Assembly (NCBI GenBank): GCA_937921995.1
Contig: CAKZVF010000022.1
Span: forward strand, 1 to 44,161
Source: an uncultured Pirellulaceae bacterium
Lineage (GTDB): Bacteria; Planctomycetota; Planctomycetia; Pirellulales; Pirellulaceae
DNA length: 44,161 nucleotides
Reading direction: 5' to 3'
Shown in pieces: positions 3,665 through 32,211 of the stretch; positions within the stretch are counted from its first letter, which is position 1; each line of letters begins with the position of its first letter. The position numbers and the translations under genes are program-made. The notes under the pieces were generated by a model. That model ran no database searches. It worked only from the letters and a program-made list of their open reading frames with translations, and was not told the DNA's origin.

Positions 3665-6091
3665 CTACCCCTTATAAAAACGGTTCGATAATAAATGCTC
3701 AACGCCCATCACCACCAACGCCAGTAACATCAGCAGCGGAAAGAACTCTTGCCCCTTACGCGCCGTTCCCTGCTTCATTTCGATCTCGCTTTGGTCGGTT
3801 GCGATCTGATACCGGTCGGTGCCCAGCACGAGATCGACGCTGTCTTTGGATGCCCTTGTCAGATCGGTCTCGCGCGGCCGCAGGTTGGCACTGAATCCGC
3901 GATTGACTGTCTGCCCATCGTAGTCGCCTTGCAGGTAATAATTTCCCGGCGCGTCAACAAACTTGTAACTAACGCGCCCTTCATTTGCCGAAATGTTCGT
4001 CGGCGTTTTCTCAGCCACCGGAGGGAAGGCACGATAACTTTCGGGATAGTACGCCAAATCATTGTCCAACGAAACGATCTCGCCAACTTGGACGTTAATT
4101 GAATCGCGATCACCCTGCAGCAAATACTTCGCCATGTCGACGGTCAGTTGATAAATGGGCCAGTTATCTCCCACGAACAGATCGTTCCAAACTTCGCGCT
4201 GCGTCGAATAGGCGGGCTCGGAGATCGGCGTCGTCATCACCATGACGATACCAGCGCCAATCGTACGTTCCAACATCGCCGGTTCGCGGTTGGTAAATCG
4301 CAGCGGCACCTCCGTCGGATACTGCTCCCACGTGGCATCGCGTTCGATTCCCCAGTGGTAGTAGACCGGGTTCGCATTCCAAGGCACCGCCGATTCGAAT
4401 TGGCGGAACACTTTGAAGATCGGATGCGTTAATTGACTGGGGCTGAGCGCGACATCGCCCGAGGGTGCACGAAAAGGGAAAGTCAATTTCCCGCACAGCA
4501 ATTCAGCTGCGCGAGGCTGAAGGAAGCTGTTGTCAGCGGCACCTTTATTCAGCGCATTGTGTCCCAAGAAAATCGCCAGCGCGTTGCCTTGCTGCACAAA
4601 CGCATGCAGCCCATCCAACAGCGACAGACTCAGCGGTCCAGGATCAAGCAAATAAACGATGTCAAAACCATCCAATTGGTCCGGCGATTGAAGATCCTCT
4701 TGGTCGATGGTCATGATTTCGAAGCGCGATTTGCCATTTGATTTGCCATTTTCTTGCGAATCATACGGTGCGATGCATGCCGCCAGTGCGTCAGGCAATG
4801 CATCGGCGCCGGTGACAATCAACACCGGCGATGCTGGTTTGACTTCAAAGGAAAAATACCTTCGATCGTCTCCCGGCAGCCCGTCCGCGTTATTTAGTGC
4901 GATGCTTCCATGGTAAACGCCTTCGGCAAGATTGTCTGAAAATGAAAATCGCAGCGGCGTCGTCGCAGTATTTTCCCCGGTGGGTGACATCGCGGGCGTG
5001 GTCGTCGACTGAGTCAACATTTTTTCGGTGTACAAGATCTTGCCGTCACGCACGACCGGCCGCGCGGGATCGTTGGCTTGAATTTGAAAGGTGACCGAAG
5101 GCGCGGATTGGCTCGCGCTGCTGTCAACGCCGCTGGTGACGGTGATCTCGCCGCGCGGAGCAATCGCAGCAGCGCTCAATTCGATCGGCTGCAACGCAAG
5201 GTTGCTCGGATCTTTGACGCCGACGTCGATGAGGAAAACGCTGACATCCTCGCCTTCAGCCAACCGTTTGAGCGCCGCATCGGTCCGCTCCGCGGCCCAA
5301 CTTTTCTGCGTCAGGTCGGTGAAAATGTAAACTTCTTTTCGTTCCAATTCAGATTTCTCAATCAAAGGCAACGCCCGGGCGAGCGTTTGCGGGATGGTTG
5401 CTGACTGATAGACGATGTCCAGTTTCGACAGTCGTTTGCCGGCCGCGGCGGTGTCGACGGAAAAAAAAGGCGTGTCGTTATCGGTCGCCGTGACGCAGAC
5501 CTGGCTCTCGATCGAAAGTTGTGTGATCAGCCACGCCGCGATGTCTTTGGCTTTGTCAAAGCGTGTCTCATTTTCAAAGCGATACTCCATCGTTGGGCTG
5601 TTGTCGATCAAAATAATTGCGGCGACCGGCGCGTCGCTGCGGCCGATGAATTTCCCGCTGGTCTCTTTGCCAAAAATTTGAAACGCGGTCCAAGCCAAGA
5701 ATCCTGTCAGTAATAAAAGGATCAGACCAAGCACCCCGACCACAACCATGTTTCTGTTTTCGCGAAACCACGCCATCGCCGCGATCAGTCCCACGACTGC
5801 TGCGGCCAACCCGATGCCGCCCAACGTTAACCAGTTGCCAAAATCGGCTGAAGCCACCGAAAGTCCAGCCAGCGCCAGCGCCACGACACCAATCAATAGG
5901 CACCTCAACAGCAGCAGCAACAGATGCCGAAGTCTCATCCGTGACTTGTTGGTCGCGCTGCGTTGTTGCAAAAAACGTAGCGCCGGAAAGGTCATCACGA
6001 CCGGTTTAGGCTGCATGAGAAAGTGCAGCAGCACAGGCACCGCCATCAGCAGGCCGCCAAGTGCAAGTATGCTCAAATGTGCCAGCGTCAT
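3665..6091 (-). CDS. BatA-like N-terminal / VWA domain membrane protein
   Basis: An 808-residue membrane protein. The N-terminus (PVLLHFLMQPKPVV then FPALRFL) is the BatA aerotolerance-type module, followed by transmembrane helices at roughly 60-80, 85-105 and 115-140. A VWA domain begins near residue 155 with IILIDNSPTMEY (DxSxT at the metal site). The long C-terminal half is extracytoplasmic-looking and beta-rich, and a final helix (LLMLLALVVMGVEHLL) anchors it. The ORF extends upstream to 6193, but I choose the ATG at 6091. That start gives the canonical BatA N-terminus, avoids overlapping the DUF58 gene by about 100 bases, and lies two bases after its TAG stop with GGGGG just upstream, implying translational coupling. 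Such proteins act with MoxR AAA ATPases in assembling or maturing envelope complexes; the client here is unknown. Confidence 0.87.
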   Translation of the reverse strand: MTLAHLSILALGGLLMAVPVLLHFLMQPKPVVMTFPALRFLQQRSATNKSRMRLRHLLLLLLRCLLIGVVALALAGLSVASADFGNWLTLGGIGLAAAVVGLIAAMAWFRENRNMVVVGVLGLILLLLTGFLAWTAFQIFGKETSGKFIGRSDAPVAAIILIDNSPTMEYRFENETRFDKAKDIAAWLITQLSIESQVCVTATDNDTPFFSVDTAAAGKRLSKLDIVYQSATIPQTLARALPLIEKSELERKEVYIFTDLTQKSWAAERTDAALKRLAEGEDVSVFLIDVGVKDPSNLALQPIELSAAAIAPRGEITVTSGVDSSASQSAPSVTFQIQANDPARPVVRDGKILYTEKMLTQSTTTPAMSPTGENTATTPLRFSFSDNLAEGVYHGSIALNNADGLPGDDRRYFSFEVKPASPVLIVTGADALPDALAACIAPYDSQENGKSNGKSRFEIMTIDQEDLQSPDQLDGFDIVYLLDPGPLSLSLLDGLHAFVQQGNALAIFLGHNALNKGAADNSFLQPRAAELLCGKLTFPFRAPSGDVALSPSQLTHPIFKVFRQFESAVPWNANPVYYHWGIERDATWEQYPTEVPLRFTNREPAMLERTIGAGIVMVMTTPISEPAYSTQREVWNDLFVGDNWPIYQLTVDMAKYLLQGDRDSINVQVGEIVSLDNDLAYYPESYRAFPPVAEKTPTNISANEGRVSYKFVDAPGNYYLQGDYDGQTVNRGFSANLRPRETDLTRASKDSVDLVLGTDRYQIATDQSEIEMKQGTARKGQEFFPLLMLLALVVMGVEHLLSNRFYKG

Positions 6092-22851: not shown

Positions 22852-22897
22852 CTCAACCCCTTAGAGTCATTTGGAATACAACACTTGGAGTCGTCCT

Positions 22898-25174
22898 TTG
22901 AAACCTTCACTGAGTTTTATTGTCTGTTTCGCTTTGACGTTGGTTTCTGCGTTTTCTGCAACCAGTGAAGCTGAAACCAAATCGACCAGTCTTCTGGTCG
23001 AAGCCGAAAGTTTCCAACAGCACGGTGGATGGAAACTGGACACGCAATTCATTGAAGAGATGGGATCGCCTTATCTATTAGCTCATGGTCTGGGCCGGCG
23101 TGTCGAAGACGCCACAACTTCGGTCACATTTCCCCAATCAGGAACGTATCACGTCTGGGTTCGAACCAAAGACTGGGTCGCCCGTTGGGATGCTGAGGGC
23201 AATCCAGGGAAATTCCAACTCGCCGTTGGAGAATCGACGTTGCCGAAGGAATTCGGGACCGAAGGAAAAGATTGGATGTGGCAGGCCGGCGGCACGGTTG
23301 ACATCAACGAAACGGCCGGTGTGAAACTTGCGCTCAAGGATGCGACGGGCTTTGACGGTCGCTGCGACGCGATTTATTTTTCGATGGAGAACACGCCTCC
23401 CCCGGGTGACGCCACGCTGCGCGATTGGCGGTTTAAGCAACTTGGGCTTTCCACAGAACCGACGGTGAAAGACGGCTACGATCTGGTTGTTGTCGGTGGC
23501 GGCTACACCGGCATGGGAGCCGCGATCAGCGCCGCGCGGATGGGTTGCCGCGTCGCCTTGATTCAAAACCGACCGGTCTTGGGCGGCAATGGATCCAGCG
23601 AAATTCGCGTTTGGGCGATGGGGAACATTCGGCGCGGCCCTTATCCACGCATTGGCGAAATCATCAACGAATTTGCTGACAGTGCAAAGAAGTCGCCGGG
23701 TACCTACGAAGAGTTCGGCGATGACCTCAAAGAAGCGGTGGTCTCGGCCGAACAGAACATCGACTTGTTCCTGAACCATCATGCCTTTGCCGCAACCGCA
23801 GAGAACAACGTGGTCACCAGCGTCACGGTATTCGACACACGCTCCAGCGAACGGAAAGAGTTTCGCGCCCCTCTGTTCTTAGATGCGACCGGCCACGGGA
23901 CCCTGGGATTTTTGGTCGGAGCTGACTGGGAGATGACGCCCGATGGTCGGATGGGGATGAGCAACATGTGGGCTTGGGATGAGCAAGCCGATGCTGTCGC
24001 GTTTGCCGATACCAGCGATTGGGCATTGGACCTGAACATGGAGGACTTTCCCTATCCGCGCGACCACCATGGCCAGTGGTTTTGGGAAAGCGGATTCGAC
24101 AAAGACCCTTTGTACGATGCCGAAGGAATCCGCGATTGGAACCTGCGAGCCGTTTTCGGTGCGTTCAATGCTATGAAAAATCGAGACGGAGCTGAAAAAC
24201 ACTCGAACGCGATTCTCACTTGGGTCGCCTACGTGGGCGGCACACGTGAATCACGACGTTTGGTTGGCGACGTTCAGTTGACCAAAGAAGACATTATCGA
24301 AAAACGAGCCTTCAAGGACGGCTGCGTTCCCACGACTTGGTCGATCGACTTGCACTATCCCAAAGAAGAGTATGCCAAAAAATTCCCCGACAACCCATTC
24401 ATCTCCAAAGCCGTTCACGATCGAAACGTCGATAGAAACATTGGCTACCCTGTTCCTTATCGCTGTTTCTATTCCAAGAACATTGACAATCTTTTTGTGG
24501 CGGGCCGCTGTGCGAGTGTCACGCACGAAGCGCTGGGAACGGTGCGCGTGATGAAGACATGCGGGATGATGGGCGAAGTGGTCGGCAAAGCGGCGGCGAT
24601 CTGCCGTCGGCACGAATGTTCTCCTCGCCAAGTCTACGAGCAGTACTGGGACGAAATGGATAAACTTTTGCAGCTTCCTGGCAAAGCTCGTCGCGCGACG
24701 GTGCAGGATGAGATCATCGTGCCAGAGAACGTGGCCGACGTACCGCCGGGGGCGCAAAGGTTGAAGTTGGCCGGGGTTGCCGTCGATGATTCGATGGCCA
24801 AAAGCAAGGGCGTTTGGAAAAATGGCCGCAATCTAAAGGGCTATCACGGTGTCGGATATCAATACGCCGCACCCAAATCCAATTCGCAGATGCGATTTTT
24901 GGTCTACTGCAGAGAGTCCGGAAGCCACGACGTTCGAATTAGTTGGCGTCCGCATGAGAACCGAGCCACCAATGCGCAGGTTGAATTGGTGGTCGATGGA
25001 AAGTCGCAGATTGTTACTGTTGATATGCAAAAATCGCCAGAACTTGAGTCGTCGTTTCATTCCATCGGCAAAGTGGATTTGGAAAAGCGCGGGCGGTGTG
25101 AGATCATCTTTGACGCAAGCGACGCTGATGGTGTCGTTTGTGTTGATGCCGTTCAACTGGTGAGAGTGAAATGA
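22898..25174 (+). CDS. Exported FAD-dependent oxidoreductase with flanking beta-sandwich domains
   Basis: A 758-residue protein. A signal peptide covers about residues 1-25 (FIVCFALTLVSAFSATSEA). A jelly-roll-like N-terminal domain follows (LLVEAESFQQHGGW; YHVWVRTKDW), typical of carbohydrate-binding modules. A FAD_oxidored (PF12831-like) domain then has its dinucleotide loop VVVGGGYTGMG near 197-207 and GGNGSSEIRVWAMG. A C-terminal golvesin-like sandwich ends VVCVDAVQLVRVK. The TTG at 22871 opens the frame, but I choose the TTG at 22898. It has GGAG seven bases upstream and places the signal peptide at the N-terminus. The stop is one base from the start of a membrane FMN/FeS protein, so the two are translationally coupled and probably partners. 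The substrate is unknown; an extracytoplasmic sugar or polysaccharide derivative is plausible from the sandwich domains. Confidence 0.85.
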   Translation: MKPSLSFIVCFALTLVSAFSATSEAETKSTSLLVEAESFQQHGGWKLDTQFIEEMGSPYLLAHGLGRRVEDATTSVTFPQSGTYHVWVRTKDWVARWDAEGNPGKFQLAVGESTLPKEFGTEGKDWMWQAGGTVDINETAGVKLALKDATGFDGRCDAIYFSMENTPPPGDATLRDWRFKQLGLSTEPTVKDGYDLVVVGGGYTGMGAAISAARMGCRVALIQNRPVLGGNGSSEIRVWAMGNIRRGPYPRIGEIINEFADSAKKSPGTYEEFGDDLKEAVVSAEQNIDLFLNHHAFAATAENNVVTSVTVFDTRSSERKEFRAPLFLDATGHGTLGFLVGADWEMTPDGRMGMSNMWAWDEQADAVAFADTSDWALDLNMEDFPYPRDHHGQWFWESGFDKDPLYDAEGIRDWNLRAVFGAFNAMKNRDGAEKHSNAILTWVAYVGGTRESRRLVGDVQLTKEDIIEKRAFKDGCVPTTWSIDLHYPKEEYAKKFPDNPFISKAVHDRNVDRNIGYPVPYRCFYSKNIDNLFVAGRCASVTHEALGTVRVMKTCGMMGEVVGKAAAICRRHECSPRQVYEQYWDEMDKLLQLPGKARRATVQDEIIVPENVADVPPGAQRLKLAGVAVDDSMAKSKGVWKNGRNLKGYHGVGYQYAAPKSNSQMRFLVYCRESGSHDVRISWRPHENRATNAQVELVVDGKSQIVTVDMQKSPELESSFHSIGKVDLEKRGRCEIIFDASDADGVVCVDAVQLVRVK

Positions 25175-25175
25175 A

Positions 25176-26966
25176 TTGAGTCAGCCGAGTCCCCAATCCG
25201 CTCTGCCGGTGCTCGATCAAGCGCCGCCCGCCCACGCTGCCCTGCCCTATTTGGTGCACGGCCTTCGTTTGTTGCTGCTGGTGGCGATTTTGGTGGTTGT
25301 TCGATTCGCCAATCAAAAAAGCTACGATTCCGGGTACGATCTTTCGACCGATCCTACGGCGGTGGCCTTTGTCGATTCGGCTTTCACAACGGATAAGGCG
25401 TTGAAGATCGAACCTGCGGCTTCACGTGACCAGTGGAATGTATCTGCCAGCGCTGAAACAATTGGCTCCGTCATTCGCACTTCCCCCCAAAGCGACGACA
25501 TCACGGGTTTTTCAGGGCCAACGGACTGCTTGATCGGGCTCGATGACCAAAACAAAATTGTCTCTGTTGGAATTCTCAGCAGTCGCGATACGGTTGAACA
25601 CGTTGACTTAATAAGAAAATCGCCCACGTTCTGCGCGGCGTTCAAGGGTTACGGATCGGGAACAAGTAAATCGTGGGCTGACATTGACGCGGTCTCCGGC
25701 GCGACGTTGACCAGCTACGCGATCGTGGCGTCGGTGGCAAAGCGCATCAGCGGACAGCAACCGGCGCTCAAGTTTCGCGCCGATCCAGCGATTGAGAAAG
25801 TGCGGAACTTGTTCCCCGAAGCCGATCGTTTGCAGGCTCAAGGCCGCCCGTCGATGTGGAAGGTGAAAGATGCTAAGGGGCGCGTGTTGGGAGAAGTGCT
25901 TTCGACGTCACCCAGTGCAGACGATTTGGTTGGCTATCAAGGGCCGACCGCGACGTTGGTCGGATTTGGTGTTGGTTCAGAAGGTGAGGAATCGACCTGT
26001 ATGGGGCTTGCCGTTGATCAGACCTACGACAATCAACCGTACGCTTCCTATTTGGACGATGCCTACGGTTTCCAGAAAAAATACAAAGGCAAAACGCTGG
26101 CCCAGTTAGCTGAGATGGATCCGGAGACATTGGGGATAGAAGGAGTCTCCGGCGCGACGATGACTACGATGTGTATCGCAGAAGGGATTCCGTTGGCAAC
26201 GACGGCTGCGCTGCGGAAAATAGAACCGAAATTGGCCGGCACACAGAAACTGCTGGTCGGCGCGACGCGCGACGGGTGGTCTTATGGAGCCGATTTAGTG
26301 ACGATAGCGCTGGCGGTGATGGGAGTTGCTTTTTCGTTCACGAAGTTGTCAGGGATAAAGTGGCTGCGGATCGGCTACCAGGTTGCGGTGGTGGTTTTGT
26401 TGGGGTTCTACAGCGGCCACATGCTATCGCAAGCGTCGATTGCTGGTTGGGCGGCCAATACGATCCCTTGGGCGGTTGCGCCCGGTTTGGTGTTGCTGAG
26501 TCTCGCGGCGTTGGCGGTGCCGATGTTCTCAAAGCATCAGCCTTACTGCCAGCACATCTGTCCCTTCGGCGCGATGCAGCAGTGGGCACGGACGCCAGCG
26601 GTGAAGCGCATTGTTCCGTGGAAGGTGACGATATCCAAAGGCGTCGCAAATGTCTTGCGCTGCGTGCCTGCAATTCTGCTTGCGATCGTCGTGGTCACCG
26701 CAGTATCCGGTTCTCGTTTGAATCTGGCGGCGCTGGAACCGTTTGATGGTTTTGGATTCCGAGTGGCCGGATGGGCGACGATCGCTGTCTTTGTCGTCGG
26801 GCTACTGTTTTCGTTCGTTTCACCGATGGCGTATTGTCGTTTTGGGTGTCCCACTGGCGCGTTGCTGAACTACAGTCGTTTTCGCGCCAACAGCCATCGT
26901 TTGGGCCTCAGAGACTTGGTTGCGGCCGGTTTACTGGTGTTGGCGATCGTCTTTTTGCAGCGATGA
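25176..26966 (+). CDS. Membrane protein with two FMN-binding domains and NosR-like 4Fe-4S motifs
   Basis: A 596-residue protein. A TM helix at about 25-45 is followed by two FMN-binding domains whose flavinylation motifs are DAVSGATLT (Thr177) and EGVSGATMT (Thr328). In this family the Thr receives FMN covalently from ApbE. Transmembrane helices then bracket two CxxxCP clusters, CQHICPFGAM (Cys458 and Cys462) and CRFGCPTGAL (Cys554 and Cys558), as in the membrane part of NosR-type proteins. The arrangement suggests electrons pass between the membrane and an extracytoplasmic partner. That partner is probably the flavoprotein encoded immediately upstream. The start is a TTG one base after the previous stop; the ribosome site is weak, so coupling is likely. 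No apbE gene is in the window. Confidence 0.85.
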   Translation: MSQPSPQSALPVLDQAPPAHAALPYLVHGLRLLLLVAILVVVRFANQKSYDSGYDLSTDPTAVAFVDSAFTTDKALKIEPAASRDQWNVSASAETIGSVIRTSPQSDDITGFSGPTDCLIGLDDQNKIVSVGILSSRDTVEHVDLIRKSPTFCAAFKGYGSGTSKSWADIDAVSGATLTSYAIVASVAKRISGQQPALKFRADPAIEKVRNLFPEADRLQAQGRPSMWKVKDAKGRVLGEVLSTSPSADDLVGYQGPTATLVGFGVGSEGEESTCMGLAVDQTYDNQPYASYLDDAYGFQKKYKGKTLAQLAEMDPETLGIEGVSGATMTTMCIAEGIPLATTAALRKIEPKLAGTQKLLVGATRDGWSYGADLVTIALAVMGVAFSFTKLSGIKWLRIGYQVAVVVLLGFYSGHMLSQASIAGWAANTIPWAVAPGLVLLSLAALAVPMFSKHQPYCQHICPFGAMQQWARTPAVKRIVPWKVTISKGVANVLRCVPAILLAIVVVTAVSGSRLNLAALEPFDGFGFRVAGWATIAVFVVGLLFSFVSPMAYCRFGCPTGALLNYSRFRANSHRLGLRDLVAAGLLVLAIVFLQR

Positions 26967-30931: not shown

Positions 30932-32140
30932 CTACGGCAGCTTGTGACCCATTTTGTCTCGTTTGGTGTCGAGATACTTTTGGTTGTGCTCGTTGATCGG
31001 GGGGATGATCGGGACTTGATCGACAACCGTGAGGTCGAACCCTCGAAGGTTAAACGCTTCGGTCTTCTTGGGATTGTTGGTCAGCAACCGAACTTCGTTC
31101 AACCCGATGTCTTTGAGGATTTGAATCCCCACGCCGTAGTCCCGCATGTCGGCCTTATGTCCCAACGCCATGTTGGCTTCGACGGTATCCATGCCTTGAT
31201 CTTGAAGACCATAGGCTTTGATCTTCTCCGCCAGCCCAATGCCTCGTCCCTCTTGCGGTAAGTAAACCAGCACACCGTAGCCTTGTTCGGCGATGGTCTC
31301 CAAGGCGATGTGAAGCTGATCACCACAATCACAACGCAGTGAATTAATCAGGTCACCCGTAAAGCAGCTGCTGTGCATGCGGACCAGCGGCGGTTCGCCT
31401 TCGTGGTTGGCCGGATCTCCCATCACAATCGCGATCGGTTCTTGAGCCTCGAATTGGACCTGGTAGGCATAGATACGAAAGTCACCGTACTTAGTGGGTA
31501 GGTTCGATTCAGCGACACGCGAAACCAATTTTTCCGAGACTCGCCGGTGCGCGATGAGGTCTTCGATGGTGATGAATTTAAGATTCTTCTCCTGAGCAAT
31601 CTTCCAGAGGTCGTCGCGTGTGGCGCGATTACCGTCATCGTTAAGAATCTCGCAAAGCACTCCCGCCGGAGCCAACCCGGCCATTCTTGCCAGATCGACG
31701 GCGGCTTCGGTGTGGCCGGCGCGGCGAAGTACGCCACCGGCTTTGGCCATCAGCATGTGAACGTGACCGGGGCGCTGAAAATTGTCGGGACCCGTTTCGG
31801 GGTTGGCGATCGCGCGGACGCACTGGGCTCTTTCGTCGGCAGTGATGCCAGTACGAGCGTCCAAGTGATCCAGCGGCGTGAGAAATGCCGTTTGATTGGT
31901 CGAGTTATTATCTTCAGAAATCGGGTGCAGTTTCAGCCGCGCTGCGGTGTCCGGGAGAATCGGACAGCAGAAATCGCCCCGGCCGCTCATCACCAGATTG
32001 ATAGATTCCGCCGTTGCCAGTTCGGCGGCGCAGATATAGTCGCCTTCATTTTCGCGGTCCTCATCGTCGATGACGATGATCACTTCCCCCCGTTTGATTG
32101 CTTCAACGGCTTCGGGGATCGTGGAAAAGGTGATAGACAT
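30932..32140 (-). CDS. ribBA: Bifunctional DHBP synthase / GTP cyclohydrolase II
   Basis: A 402-residue fusion that supplies both starting compounds for riboflavin. The N-terminal RibB domain makes 3,4-dihydroxy-2-butanone 4-phosphate (DDEDRENEGDYICAAE, RPGHVHML, RRAGHTEAAVDLARMAG). The C-terminal RibA domain opens GTP, with zinc cysteines in MHSSCFTGDLINSLRCDCGDQ and the active region PQEGRGIGLAEKIKAYGLQD. ATG at 32140 is chosen over the TTG at 32143. No FMN riboswitch is visible upstream. A flavin supply gene lies in the same window as two flavin-dependent proteins but about 4 kb away and unlinked. Confidence 0.96.
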   Translation of the reverse strand: MSITFSTIPEAVEAIKRGEVIIVIDDEDRENEGDYICAAELATAESINLVMSGRGDFCCPILPDTAARLKLHPISEDNNSTNQTAFLTPLDHLDARTGITADERAQCVRAIANPETGPDNFQRPGHVHMLMAKAGGVLRRAGHTEAAVDLARMAGLAPAGVLCEILNDDGNRATRDDLWKIAQEKNLKFITIEDLIAHRRVSEKLVSRVAESNLPTKYGDFRIYAYQVQFEAQEPIAIVMGDPANHEGEPPLVRMHSSCFTGDLINSLRCDCGDQLHIALETIAEQGYGVLVYLPQEGRGIGLAEKIKAYGLQDQGMDTVEANMALGHKADMRDYGVGIQILKDIGLNEVRLLTNNPKKTEAFNLRGFDLTVVDQVPIIPPINEHNQKYLDTKRDKMGHKLP

Positions 32141-32211
32141 CAAACAGCTTTCGGTGGTTCAGCGGTGGTATCGGTTCGTTATGCAAACGATCCGTTTTTC
32201 AAAGGCCCGTT

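What the first reader, a model, noticed from the sequence alone, without database searches (positions are those of the whole stretch)
22898..26966. Secreted flavoprotein coupled to a dual-FMN, dual-CxxxCP membrane protein
Stop and start are one base apart, so the pair is probably co-translated. The first protein has a signal peptide and an FAD domain between two sugar-binding-like sandwiches. The second carries two covalent-flavin domains and two NosR-like iron-sulfur motifs in membrane helices. This reads as a self-contained route moving electrons between an extracytoplasmic oxidation reaction and the membrane. The substrate is unknown.
Basis: partly seen in the sequence, partly recalled or inferred. 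Interest (0 to 1): 0.7.

Follow-up and report, generated by a model that had tools for sequence, protein, structure and literature searches.

The report
Secreted flavoenzyme with dedicated membrane electron carrier
Two neighbouring genes appear to encode a flavin enzyme that works outside the cell membrane and a membrane protein that carries its electrons, a pairing kept across many Planctomycetes and Verrucomicrobia although the substrate is unknown.

Summary
Gene A (22898-25174) has a signal-peptide-like start and a PF12831 FAD domain between two beta-sandwich regions. Gene B (25176-26966) has a membrane anchor, two FMN-attachment domains (a tandem duplication), then six more membrane helices with two CxxxCP motifs. 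The pairing is not chance. A lies just upstream of B in 64 of 102 distinct loci, often overlapping by 4 bases. When the genes are apart, both are usually still kept: in 147 relatives all 51 B-genomes have A; in 296 genomes of the order 75 have both, 5 B only, 6 A only, 210 neither. New evidence that B is flavinylated: the flavin transferase ApbE is fused to B in 4 of the 102 loci and adjacent to the pair in 16 more. Charge distribution puts the FMN domains on A's side of the membrane and the CxxxCP motifs inside. B meets the sequence definition of the published 'NapH-like' flavinylated class; PceC/RdhC is its closest described architecture. The A partner, the doubled FMN domain and the ApbE fusion make it a new variant. 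Most likely A oxidises an extracytoplasmic, perhaps carbohydrate, substrate and B passes the electrons to quinone. Direction and substrate are inferred, not shown.

The parts
22898..25174 (+). Gene A: secreted FAD-dependent oxidoreductase (758 aa from TTG at 22898; in-frame upstream TTG at 22871)
   Evidence: PF12831 E=8.3e-72; GGAG at 22887-22890, 7 bases before TTG 22898, read
22898..22975 (+). A: signal-peptide-like N-terminus (approximate end)
   Evidence: hydrophobic N-terminus in 33 of 35 A sequences; helix 6-20
22988..23392 (+). A: N-terminal beta-sandwich (residues about 31-165)
   Evidence: weak Golvesin_C match E=1.6e-4, below cut-off; strands in model
23480..24757 (+). A: FAD domain (residues about 195-620, GGGYTGMG dinucleotide motif)
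   Evidence: PF12831; one search places stretches at 23480-24085 and 24197-24637
24791..25165 (+). A: C-terminal sandwich, Golvesin_C / xanthan-lyase C-terminal-like
   Evidence: PF25275 E=1e-10; searches match to 6f2p
25176..26966 (+). Gene B: dual-FMN, dual-CxxxCP membrane protein (596 aa, TTG start)
25242..25310 (+). B: transmembrane anchor TM1
   Evidence: hydropathy and charge over 46 sequences; model helix 23-51
25401..25766 (+). B: FMN-binding domain 1
   Evidence: PF04205; RnfG by profile and, weakly, by fold
25695..25706 (+). B: flavinylation motif 1, SGAT (predicted FMN on Thr177)
   Evidence: Thr177 in 47 of 48
25818..26219 (+). B: FMN-binding domain 2 (tandem duplicate of domain 1)
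   Evidence: hhalign E=1.6e-38
26148..26159 (+). B: flavinylation motif 2, SGAT (predicted FMN on Thr328)
   Evidence: SGAT in 48 of 48
26274..26960 (+). B: NapH/NosR-like membrane module TM2-TM7
26547..26564 (+). B: CxxxCP motif 1, cytoplasmic side
   Evidence: both Cys in 48 of 48; charge distribution
26835..26852 (+). B: CxxxCP motif 2, cytoplasmic side
   Evidence: both Cys in 47 of 48 (one gap)

Best explanation
A and B are an extracytoplasmic flavoenzyme and its dedicated transmembrane electron carrier. A is exported and holds FAD. B is anchored by TM1 and displays two FMN domains in the same compartment; ApbE attaches FMN covalently to Thr177 and Thr328. Electrons pass between A-FAD, the two FMNs, and the membrane module with two CxxxCP motifs on its inner side. 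Most likely A oxidises its substrate and B delivers the electrons to the quinone pool, so the pair is an entry point to the respiratory chain that needs no cytochrome c. Supported here by sequence evidence: the pairing, the duplicated FMN domains, intact cofactor motifs, topology and the ApbE link. Inferred: covalent FMN, electron flow between A and B, direction, quinone as partner, and a carbohydrate-like substrate.
For: Co-occurrence 51/0/2/94 (both / B only / A only / neither) over 147 genomes, p=1e-37, and 35/0/2/68 over 105 genera (A called by hand, see full report; 51/0/4/92, p=3e-35, if two borderline genomes count as A). With fixed thresholds over 296 genomes of the order: 75/5/6/210, p=2e-56; on handles first issued in that sample 55/4/6/143, p=2e-38. 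A just upstream of B in 64 of 102 distinct loci, 51 with gaps of -100 to +50 bases, in Planctomycetota and Verrucomicrobiota. A present in 21 of 22 searched genomes whose B had no immediately adjacent A. ApbE fused to B in L034, L046, L050, L163 (Pfam), adjacent to the pair in 16 further distinct loci, and beside A alone in L170. B is the only PF04205 protein over cut-off in the held genome, which has one ApbE match. Charge distribution over 46 sequences puts FMN outside and CxxxCP inside; a fused ApbE after TM7 fits that. Sugar leads: a sandwich of the xanthan-lyase C-terminal type, a CBM_6-like domain in a paralogue of A (1.9e-6, 28.6 bits, just under the cut-off of 28.9), a XylR/AraC-type regulator divergent from A in L172.
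Against: No biochemistry. The A model is of limited quality (mean pLDDT 78.3, several FAD-domain stretches below 50), so no active site could be read, and its fold matches have low TM-scores (0.25 or less on the query among the 50 listed). The best described relatives of B (NosR, PceC) send electrons outward to reductases. The nearest matches of A's FAD domain include fumarate reductases and geranylgeranyl reductases, which do not favour an oxidation. Paralogues A' (about 44-51% identical) live in genomes without B, so this enzyme class does not always need B. Genomes with A but no detected B and the reverse exist (6 and 5 of 296). No carbohydrate gene is a steady neighbour: a sulfatase-like cluster (named by eye) reached 21 de-duplicated loci among 148 sources, but no background rate was measured.
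Confidence: 0.6

Rival explanations
1. Same machinery, opposite direction: B draws electrons from quinol and A is an extracytoplasmic reductase, like fumarate reductase-like enzymes or the targets of NosR and PceC.
For: NapH-like proteins with known partners include those of N2O and organohalide respiration (PMC8238504 section 9); A's matches include flavocytochrome c fumarate reductase and geranylgeranyl reductase.
Against: The same section lists an ethanol-oxidase partner, so the class works both ways. No anaerobic respiratory gene stood out among the 25 commonest neighbour clusters listed, most of which were only looked at by eye.
Confidence: 0.3
2. B is a general extracytoplasmic flavin relay for several PF12831 enzymes; A is its commonest client, not its only one.
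For: In L047/L136 (same locus), L065, L111 and L131 a different, 1137-1184 aa PF12831 protein lies divergently next to B. The one genome of 22 without an A match (G152, locus L111) is among these.
Against: Only 4 distinct loci; the three that are in the tree sit on one branch together with L098, where one search lists no such neighbour. Elsewhere A and B are near-obligate partners. G152 may be incomplete.
Confidence: 0.25
3. The pair is a chance or lineage-bound neighbourhood without functional coupling.
For: Genes within one order share ancestry; in 38 of 102 loci no same-strand adjacent A was found, though in 3 or 4 of these the contig ends just upstream.
Against: Patchy within one genus, yet 17 of 17 B-genomes have A and 0 of 11 others do; adjacency recurs in two phyla and on many branches of the B tree; co-occurrence persists without linkage.
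Confidence: 0.03
4. B is not a redox carrier but a regulator or maturation factor for A, as NosR was once described for NosZ.
For: NCBIfam still names the NosR model a transcriptional regulator.
Against: No regulatory domain among the Pfam matches; both FMN sites and all four cysteines are conserved; ApbE fusion.
Confidence: 0.05

Closest known systems
NapH-like flavinylated systems (Meheust et al. 2021, PMC8238504)
   Same: [quoted passage not shown] modular link to oxidoreductases (section 9).
   Different: Two FMN domains, PF12831 partner A, ApbE fused to the C-terminus in some. The sections read name exaA, nirS, NosZ and PceC systems; 'planctomycet' does not occur in the main text, and a library-wide search for PF12831 did not return this paper.
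RdhC/PceC (PMC5928378)
   Same: FMN domain outside between helix 1 and 2, two CX3CP motifs, no C-terminal Fe-S domain (passages).
   Different: PceC has one FMN domain, six helices and a reductive dehalogenase partner.
NosR
   Same: FMN domain plus CxxxCP membrane module; best NCBIfam hit 3.1e-14.
   Different: Far below the equivalog cut-off (52.2 against 1000 bits); B has no C-terminal Fe-S domain; no nosZ was seen next to it.
Fumarate reductase-like flavinylated enzymes (PF00890: FrdA, UrdA)
   Same: Extracytoplasmic FAD enzyme served by covalent FMN (section 16).
   Different: A is PF12831 with PF00890 only at the dinucleotide motif; FMN sits on the membrane partner, not on the enzyme.
RnfG / NqrC
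   Same: FMN domain 1 matches RnfG by profile (best E=6.9e-9) and weakly by fold (E=0.035).
   Different: The membrane module is of the NapH/NosR type, not Rnf/Nqr.

Membership tests
NapH-like flavinylated system (Meheust 2021) | PF12801 membrane protein with several transmembrane helices | tested here: met
   PF12801 E=4.7e-10, two stretches; 7 helices
NapH-like flavinylated system (Meheust 2021) | FMN-binding domain in the same protein or gene cluster | tested here: met
   PF04205 in B plus duplicate
NapH-like flavinylated system (Meheust 2021) | Covalent FMN attached by ApbE | not testable with these tools
   Motifs and ApbE fusions fit; no experiment
NosR | Equivalog score and C-terminal 4Fe-4S domain | tested here: not met
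   52.2 bits against cut-off 1000; B ends after TM7 and Pfam finds no such domain there
RdhC/PceC | FMN domain outside, two CX3CP, no C-terminal Fe-S domain | tested here: met
   features from passages
RdhC/PceC | Association with a reductive dehalogenase | not tested
   No search for PceA-type enzymes was made
PF12831 FAD-dependent oxidoreductase (A) | Score over Pfam gathering cut-off | tested here: met
   243.2 bits against 27
PF00890 fumarate reductase-like (A) | Full-length FAD_binding_2 domain | tested here: not met
   29.4 bits, over the cut-off of 20.4, but the best stretch is residues 204-240 only, profile 1-37 of 414

The most novel reading that the evidence does not exclude
A dedicated respiratory entry point of Planctomycetota and Verrucomicrobiota: an exported FAD enzyme that oxidises a sugar unit of a poly- or oligosaccharide outside the membrane and hands the electrons through two covalent FMNs to quinone, so that part of polysaccharide breakdown drives respiration before uptake, without cytochrome c.
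Probability: 0.3. Interest if true: 0.72.

Novelty: new variant of a known kind. Interest (0 to 1): 0.52.

Why it matters
Meheust et al. [quoted passage not shown] This gives one of them a named, near-obligate enzyme partner and an internal ApbE link, which turns an orphan electron carrier into a testable enzyme-carrier pair. Blastopirellula marina DSM 3645 and Rhodopirellula solitaria CA85 carry the two genes adjacent. If the substrate is a carbohydrate, it would add a periplasmic oxidation step to the polysaccharide biology of these bacteria.

Tried and rejected
Cytochrome c as the partner of paralogue A': a gene with a c-type motif is directly adjacent on the same strand in only 2 of the 28 A' loci where the A' ORF was located (L185, L192; in two further loci, L193 and L246, none was located), so it was dropped as a general rule.

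3-keto-glycoside pathway as a substrate hint: a PF06439 gene overlaps A' in L190, but a search of the ORFs of 178 loci found only two other hits, both away from A or A' (L103, L073); kept as a lead only.

A fucosidase-like neighbour suspected from the cluster list was a mistake: that cluster is a different common protein. One ORF upstream of B in L055 looks by eye like a fucosidase; not tested. ApbE co-occurrence over relatives is uninformative: 147 of 147 genomes have it. Structure search of B gave only Rnf subunit G with high probability, none at E 0.001 or better. The first-ranked fold match of A, the insect toxin Cry1Aa, has TM 0.16 and rmsd 28.8 and is taken as an artefact. The complex could not be predicted (single chains only, up to 1200 residues).

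An earlier ApbE count used ORFs thinned for overlap and missed two loci; one search repeats it on all ORFs and replaces it.

Literature: seven searches of the held open library listed no paper on this pair. Seen of papers: PMC8238504 outline with abstract, sections 8, 9, 16, 17, 18 and passages; PMC11334425 and PMC5928378 passages; all others search listing only.
Full report
What is there. The window is contig C22 of a 4.82 Mb, 329-contig, 77% complete genome. Its nearest named matches for B are labelled uncultured Pirellulaceae (L084 at 79%, L085 at 66% identity), so it is probably of that family. Two genes on the + strand are separated by one base. A (22898-25174) scores E=8.3e-72 to PF12831 and has Golvesin_C-type sandwiches at both ends, the N-terminal one weak on its own. 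B (25176-26966) has a membrane anchor, two FMN domains, then six helices with two CxxxCP motifs. Pfam sees only the first FMN domain; the second is its duplicate by profile-profile alignment with the SGAT motifs in register. Over 48 sequences (47 loci and the window) the second SGAT is invariant, the first motif's threonine is present in 47, and the cysteines of the CxxxCP motifs in 48 and 47, the other being a gap.

Is the pairing more than chance? In 147 related genomes B is in 51 (full-length or contig-truncated, at least 100 bits); ten further genomes have only short, weak matches to the membrane module and were not counted. All 51 have a P0002 match that I called A. I made that call by hand: best piece of 52% identity or more, plus G035, whose 51% piece is cut by a contig end. 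The weakest are G035, G083 and G096, all partial or in pieces. Matches of about 48-51% covering residues 10-600 were called a paralogue, A'. Two genomes without B have a full-length A at 54-55% (G036, G066). Two more, G050 and G052, match in two pieces of 41-50% that reach the C-terminus and are closer to A' (57-58%); counting them as A gives 51/0/4/92. Fisher p=1e-37 (3e-35 for the variant), 8e-26 by genus, 5e-8 within the window's genus, 17/0/0/11. Shared ancestry makes these values optimistic. I therefore repeated the test with fixed thresholds on 296 genomes of the order: 75 both, 5 B only, 6 A only, 210 neither. On handles first issued in that sample, taken to be G169-G376, the split is 55/4/6/143; the last cell rests on that range. 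Of the A-only rows, G209 and G280 match only up to about residue 598 (A'-like), G331 is a partial match with a stop, and G310, G344 and G356 are full-length. Of the B-only rows, G096 has a partial A. Of the 75, 49 have A directly upstream of B.

Adjacency by name. A is adjacent upstream in 46 of 80. In four held loci fewer than 400 bases lie upstream of B (L041, L068, L096, L126). Of the 34 loci without an adjacent A, 22 genomes were searched whole, including L125: 21 have an A match. Six of these, all Verrucomicrobiota, match in pieces of 49-56% identity, near the border with A', and G151 has only a partial match. Rows with and without adjacent A fall on several branches of the B tree, and the Verrucomicrobiota label needs at least 2 changes, which fits an old linkage repeatedly broken.

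The flavin transferase. The C-terminal extensions of B in L034, L046, L050 and L163 are complete ApbE domains (E 9.5e-49 to 1.6e-71); the first three also have A upstream. A separate ApbE-type gene is adjacent to the pair in 16 further distinct loci: upstream of A in L107, L109, L119, L130 and L133, and downstream of B in L035, L041, L042, L063, L064, L125, L138, L145, L157, L159 and L161. In L035 and L041 mechanically extended ORFs overlap B in another frame; for G128 (L035) the whole-genome matches place ApbE just beyond B. In L170 ApbE is next to A while B is elsewhere. These come from a profile built on one neighbour cluster; Pfam was run on L161 and L170. A weak hit in L036 was not counted. 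In the held genome B is the only PF04205 protein over cut-off and there is one ApbE match, unlinked; about a quarter of the genome may be missing. ApbE is in all 147 relatives, so its mere presence says nothing.

Topology. Over 46 sequences the loops holding the CxxxCP motifs carry on average 7.4 and 3.8 Lys+Arg, against 0.7 in each of the two opposite loops. This puts the motifs inside and the FMN domains outside. With seven helices the C-terminus is outside, where a fused ApbE would need to be. A has a hydrophobic N-terminus in 33 of 35 sequences.

How it most likely works. A's FAD exchanges electrons with a substrate outside the membrane; B's two FMNs form a short wire; the membrane module connects to quinone. 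That NapH-like carriers may serve reductases or oxidases is stated in PMC8238504 section 9, so direction is open. I favour oxidation because these groups are known for polysaccharide use (recalled) and because the sandwich domains, a CBM_6-like domain in A' (L185) and AraC/XylR-type regulators divergent from A (L172) and near A' (L194, and 3 kb off in L186) point to sugars. None of this is proof. Whether CxxxCP holds iron-sulfur is unsettled: the PceC authors thought disulfide bridges more likely (passage).

Comparison. B meets the sequence definition of the NapH-like flavinylated class and is built most like PceC/RdhC, but it is not NosR (52.2 bits against a cut-off of 1000). I found no PF12831 partner in the sections and passages read, nor any paper on the pair in seven searches; supplementary tables were not readable. 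It is therefore a new variant of a known kind: new partner, doubled FMN domain, ApbE fusion.

Limits. Genome searches score only a limited number of first-look candidates, so absences can be false. The A model is weak in its FAD domain. No complex was modelled. The substrate remains unknown.

Noticed in passing
L047:2644-6198, L065:10069-13506, L111:501-3914, L131:2441-5965: A different, 1137-1184 aa PF12831 protein lies divergently next to B; Pfam finds four PF12831 stretches in each, which suggests a doubled FAD domain. Possible second client of B.
   Followed up: partly
L107, L109, L112, L119, L123, L130, L133 (C-terminus of B): B carries an extra C-terminal membrane segment of about 155-185 aa; in L107, the one scanned, it weakly matches PGPGW (E=4e-4, below cut-off). 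Role unknown.
   Followed up: partly
L185-L192, L194, L227-L245: Paralogue A' (about 44-51% identical to A), with a CBM_6-like C-terminus in L185; several of its genomes have no B. Its electron acceptor is unknown.
   Followed up: partly
L190:2865-3731 and 3680-6043: A 3-keto-disaccharide hydrolase gene (PF06439) overlaps A', a possible hint at glycoside oxidation; the only such immediate neighbour found.
   Followed up: yes
window 30932-32143, - strand: ribBA, a riboflavin biosynthesis gene (PF00926 and PF00925), lies 4 kb from the flavin pair; probably coincidence.
   Followed up: partly
L079:9193-10314: The genome's ApbE has a twin-arginine-like start (RRDFL) and sits beside an ORF that looks by eye like ffh, with no flavinylation target in view.
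   Followed up: no
G149:C1:6404543-6406315 (strain CA13): A second A-like match of 66% identity contains two stops; whether it is a decayed copy or a match running past its end was not checked.
   Followed up: no
L172-L179: In the window's genus, when A is apart from B it lies in a conserved setting with a XylR/AraC-type regulator and an arginine decarboxylase gene; domains checked for L172 only.
   Followed up: partly
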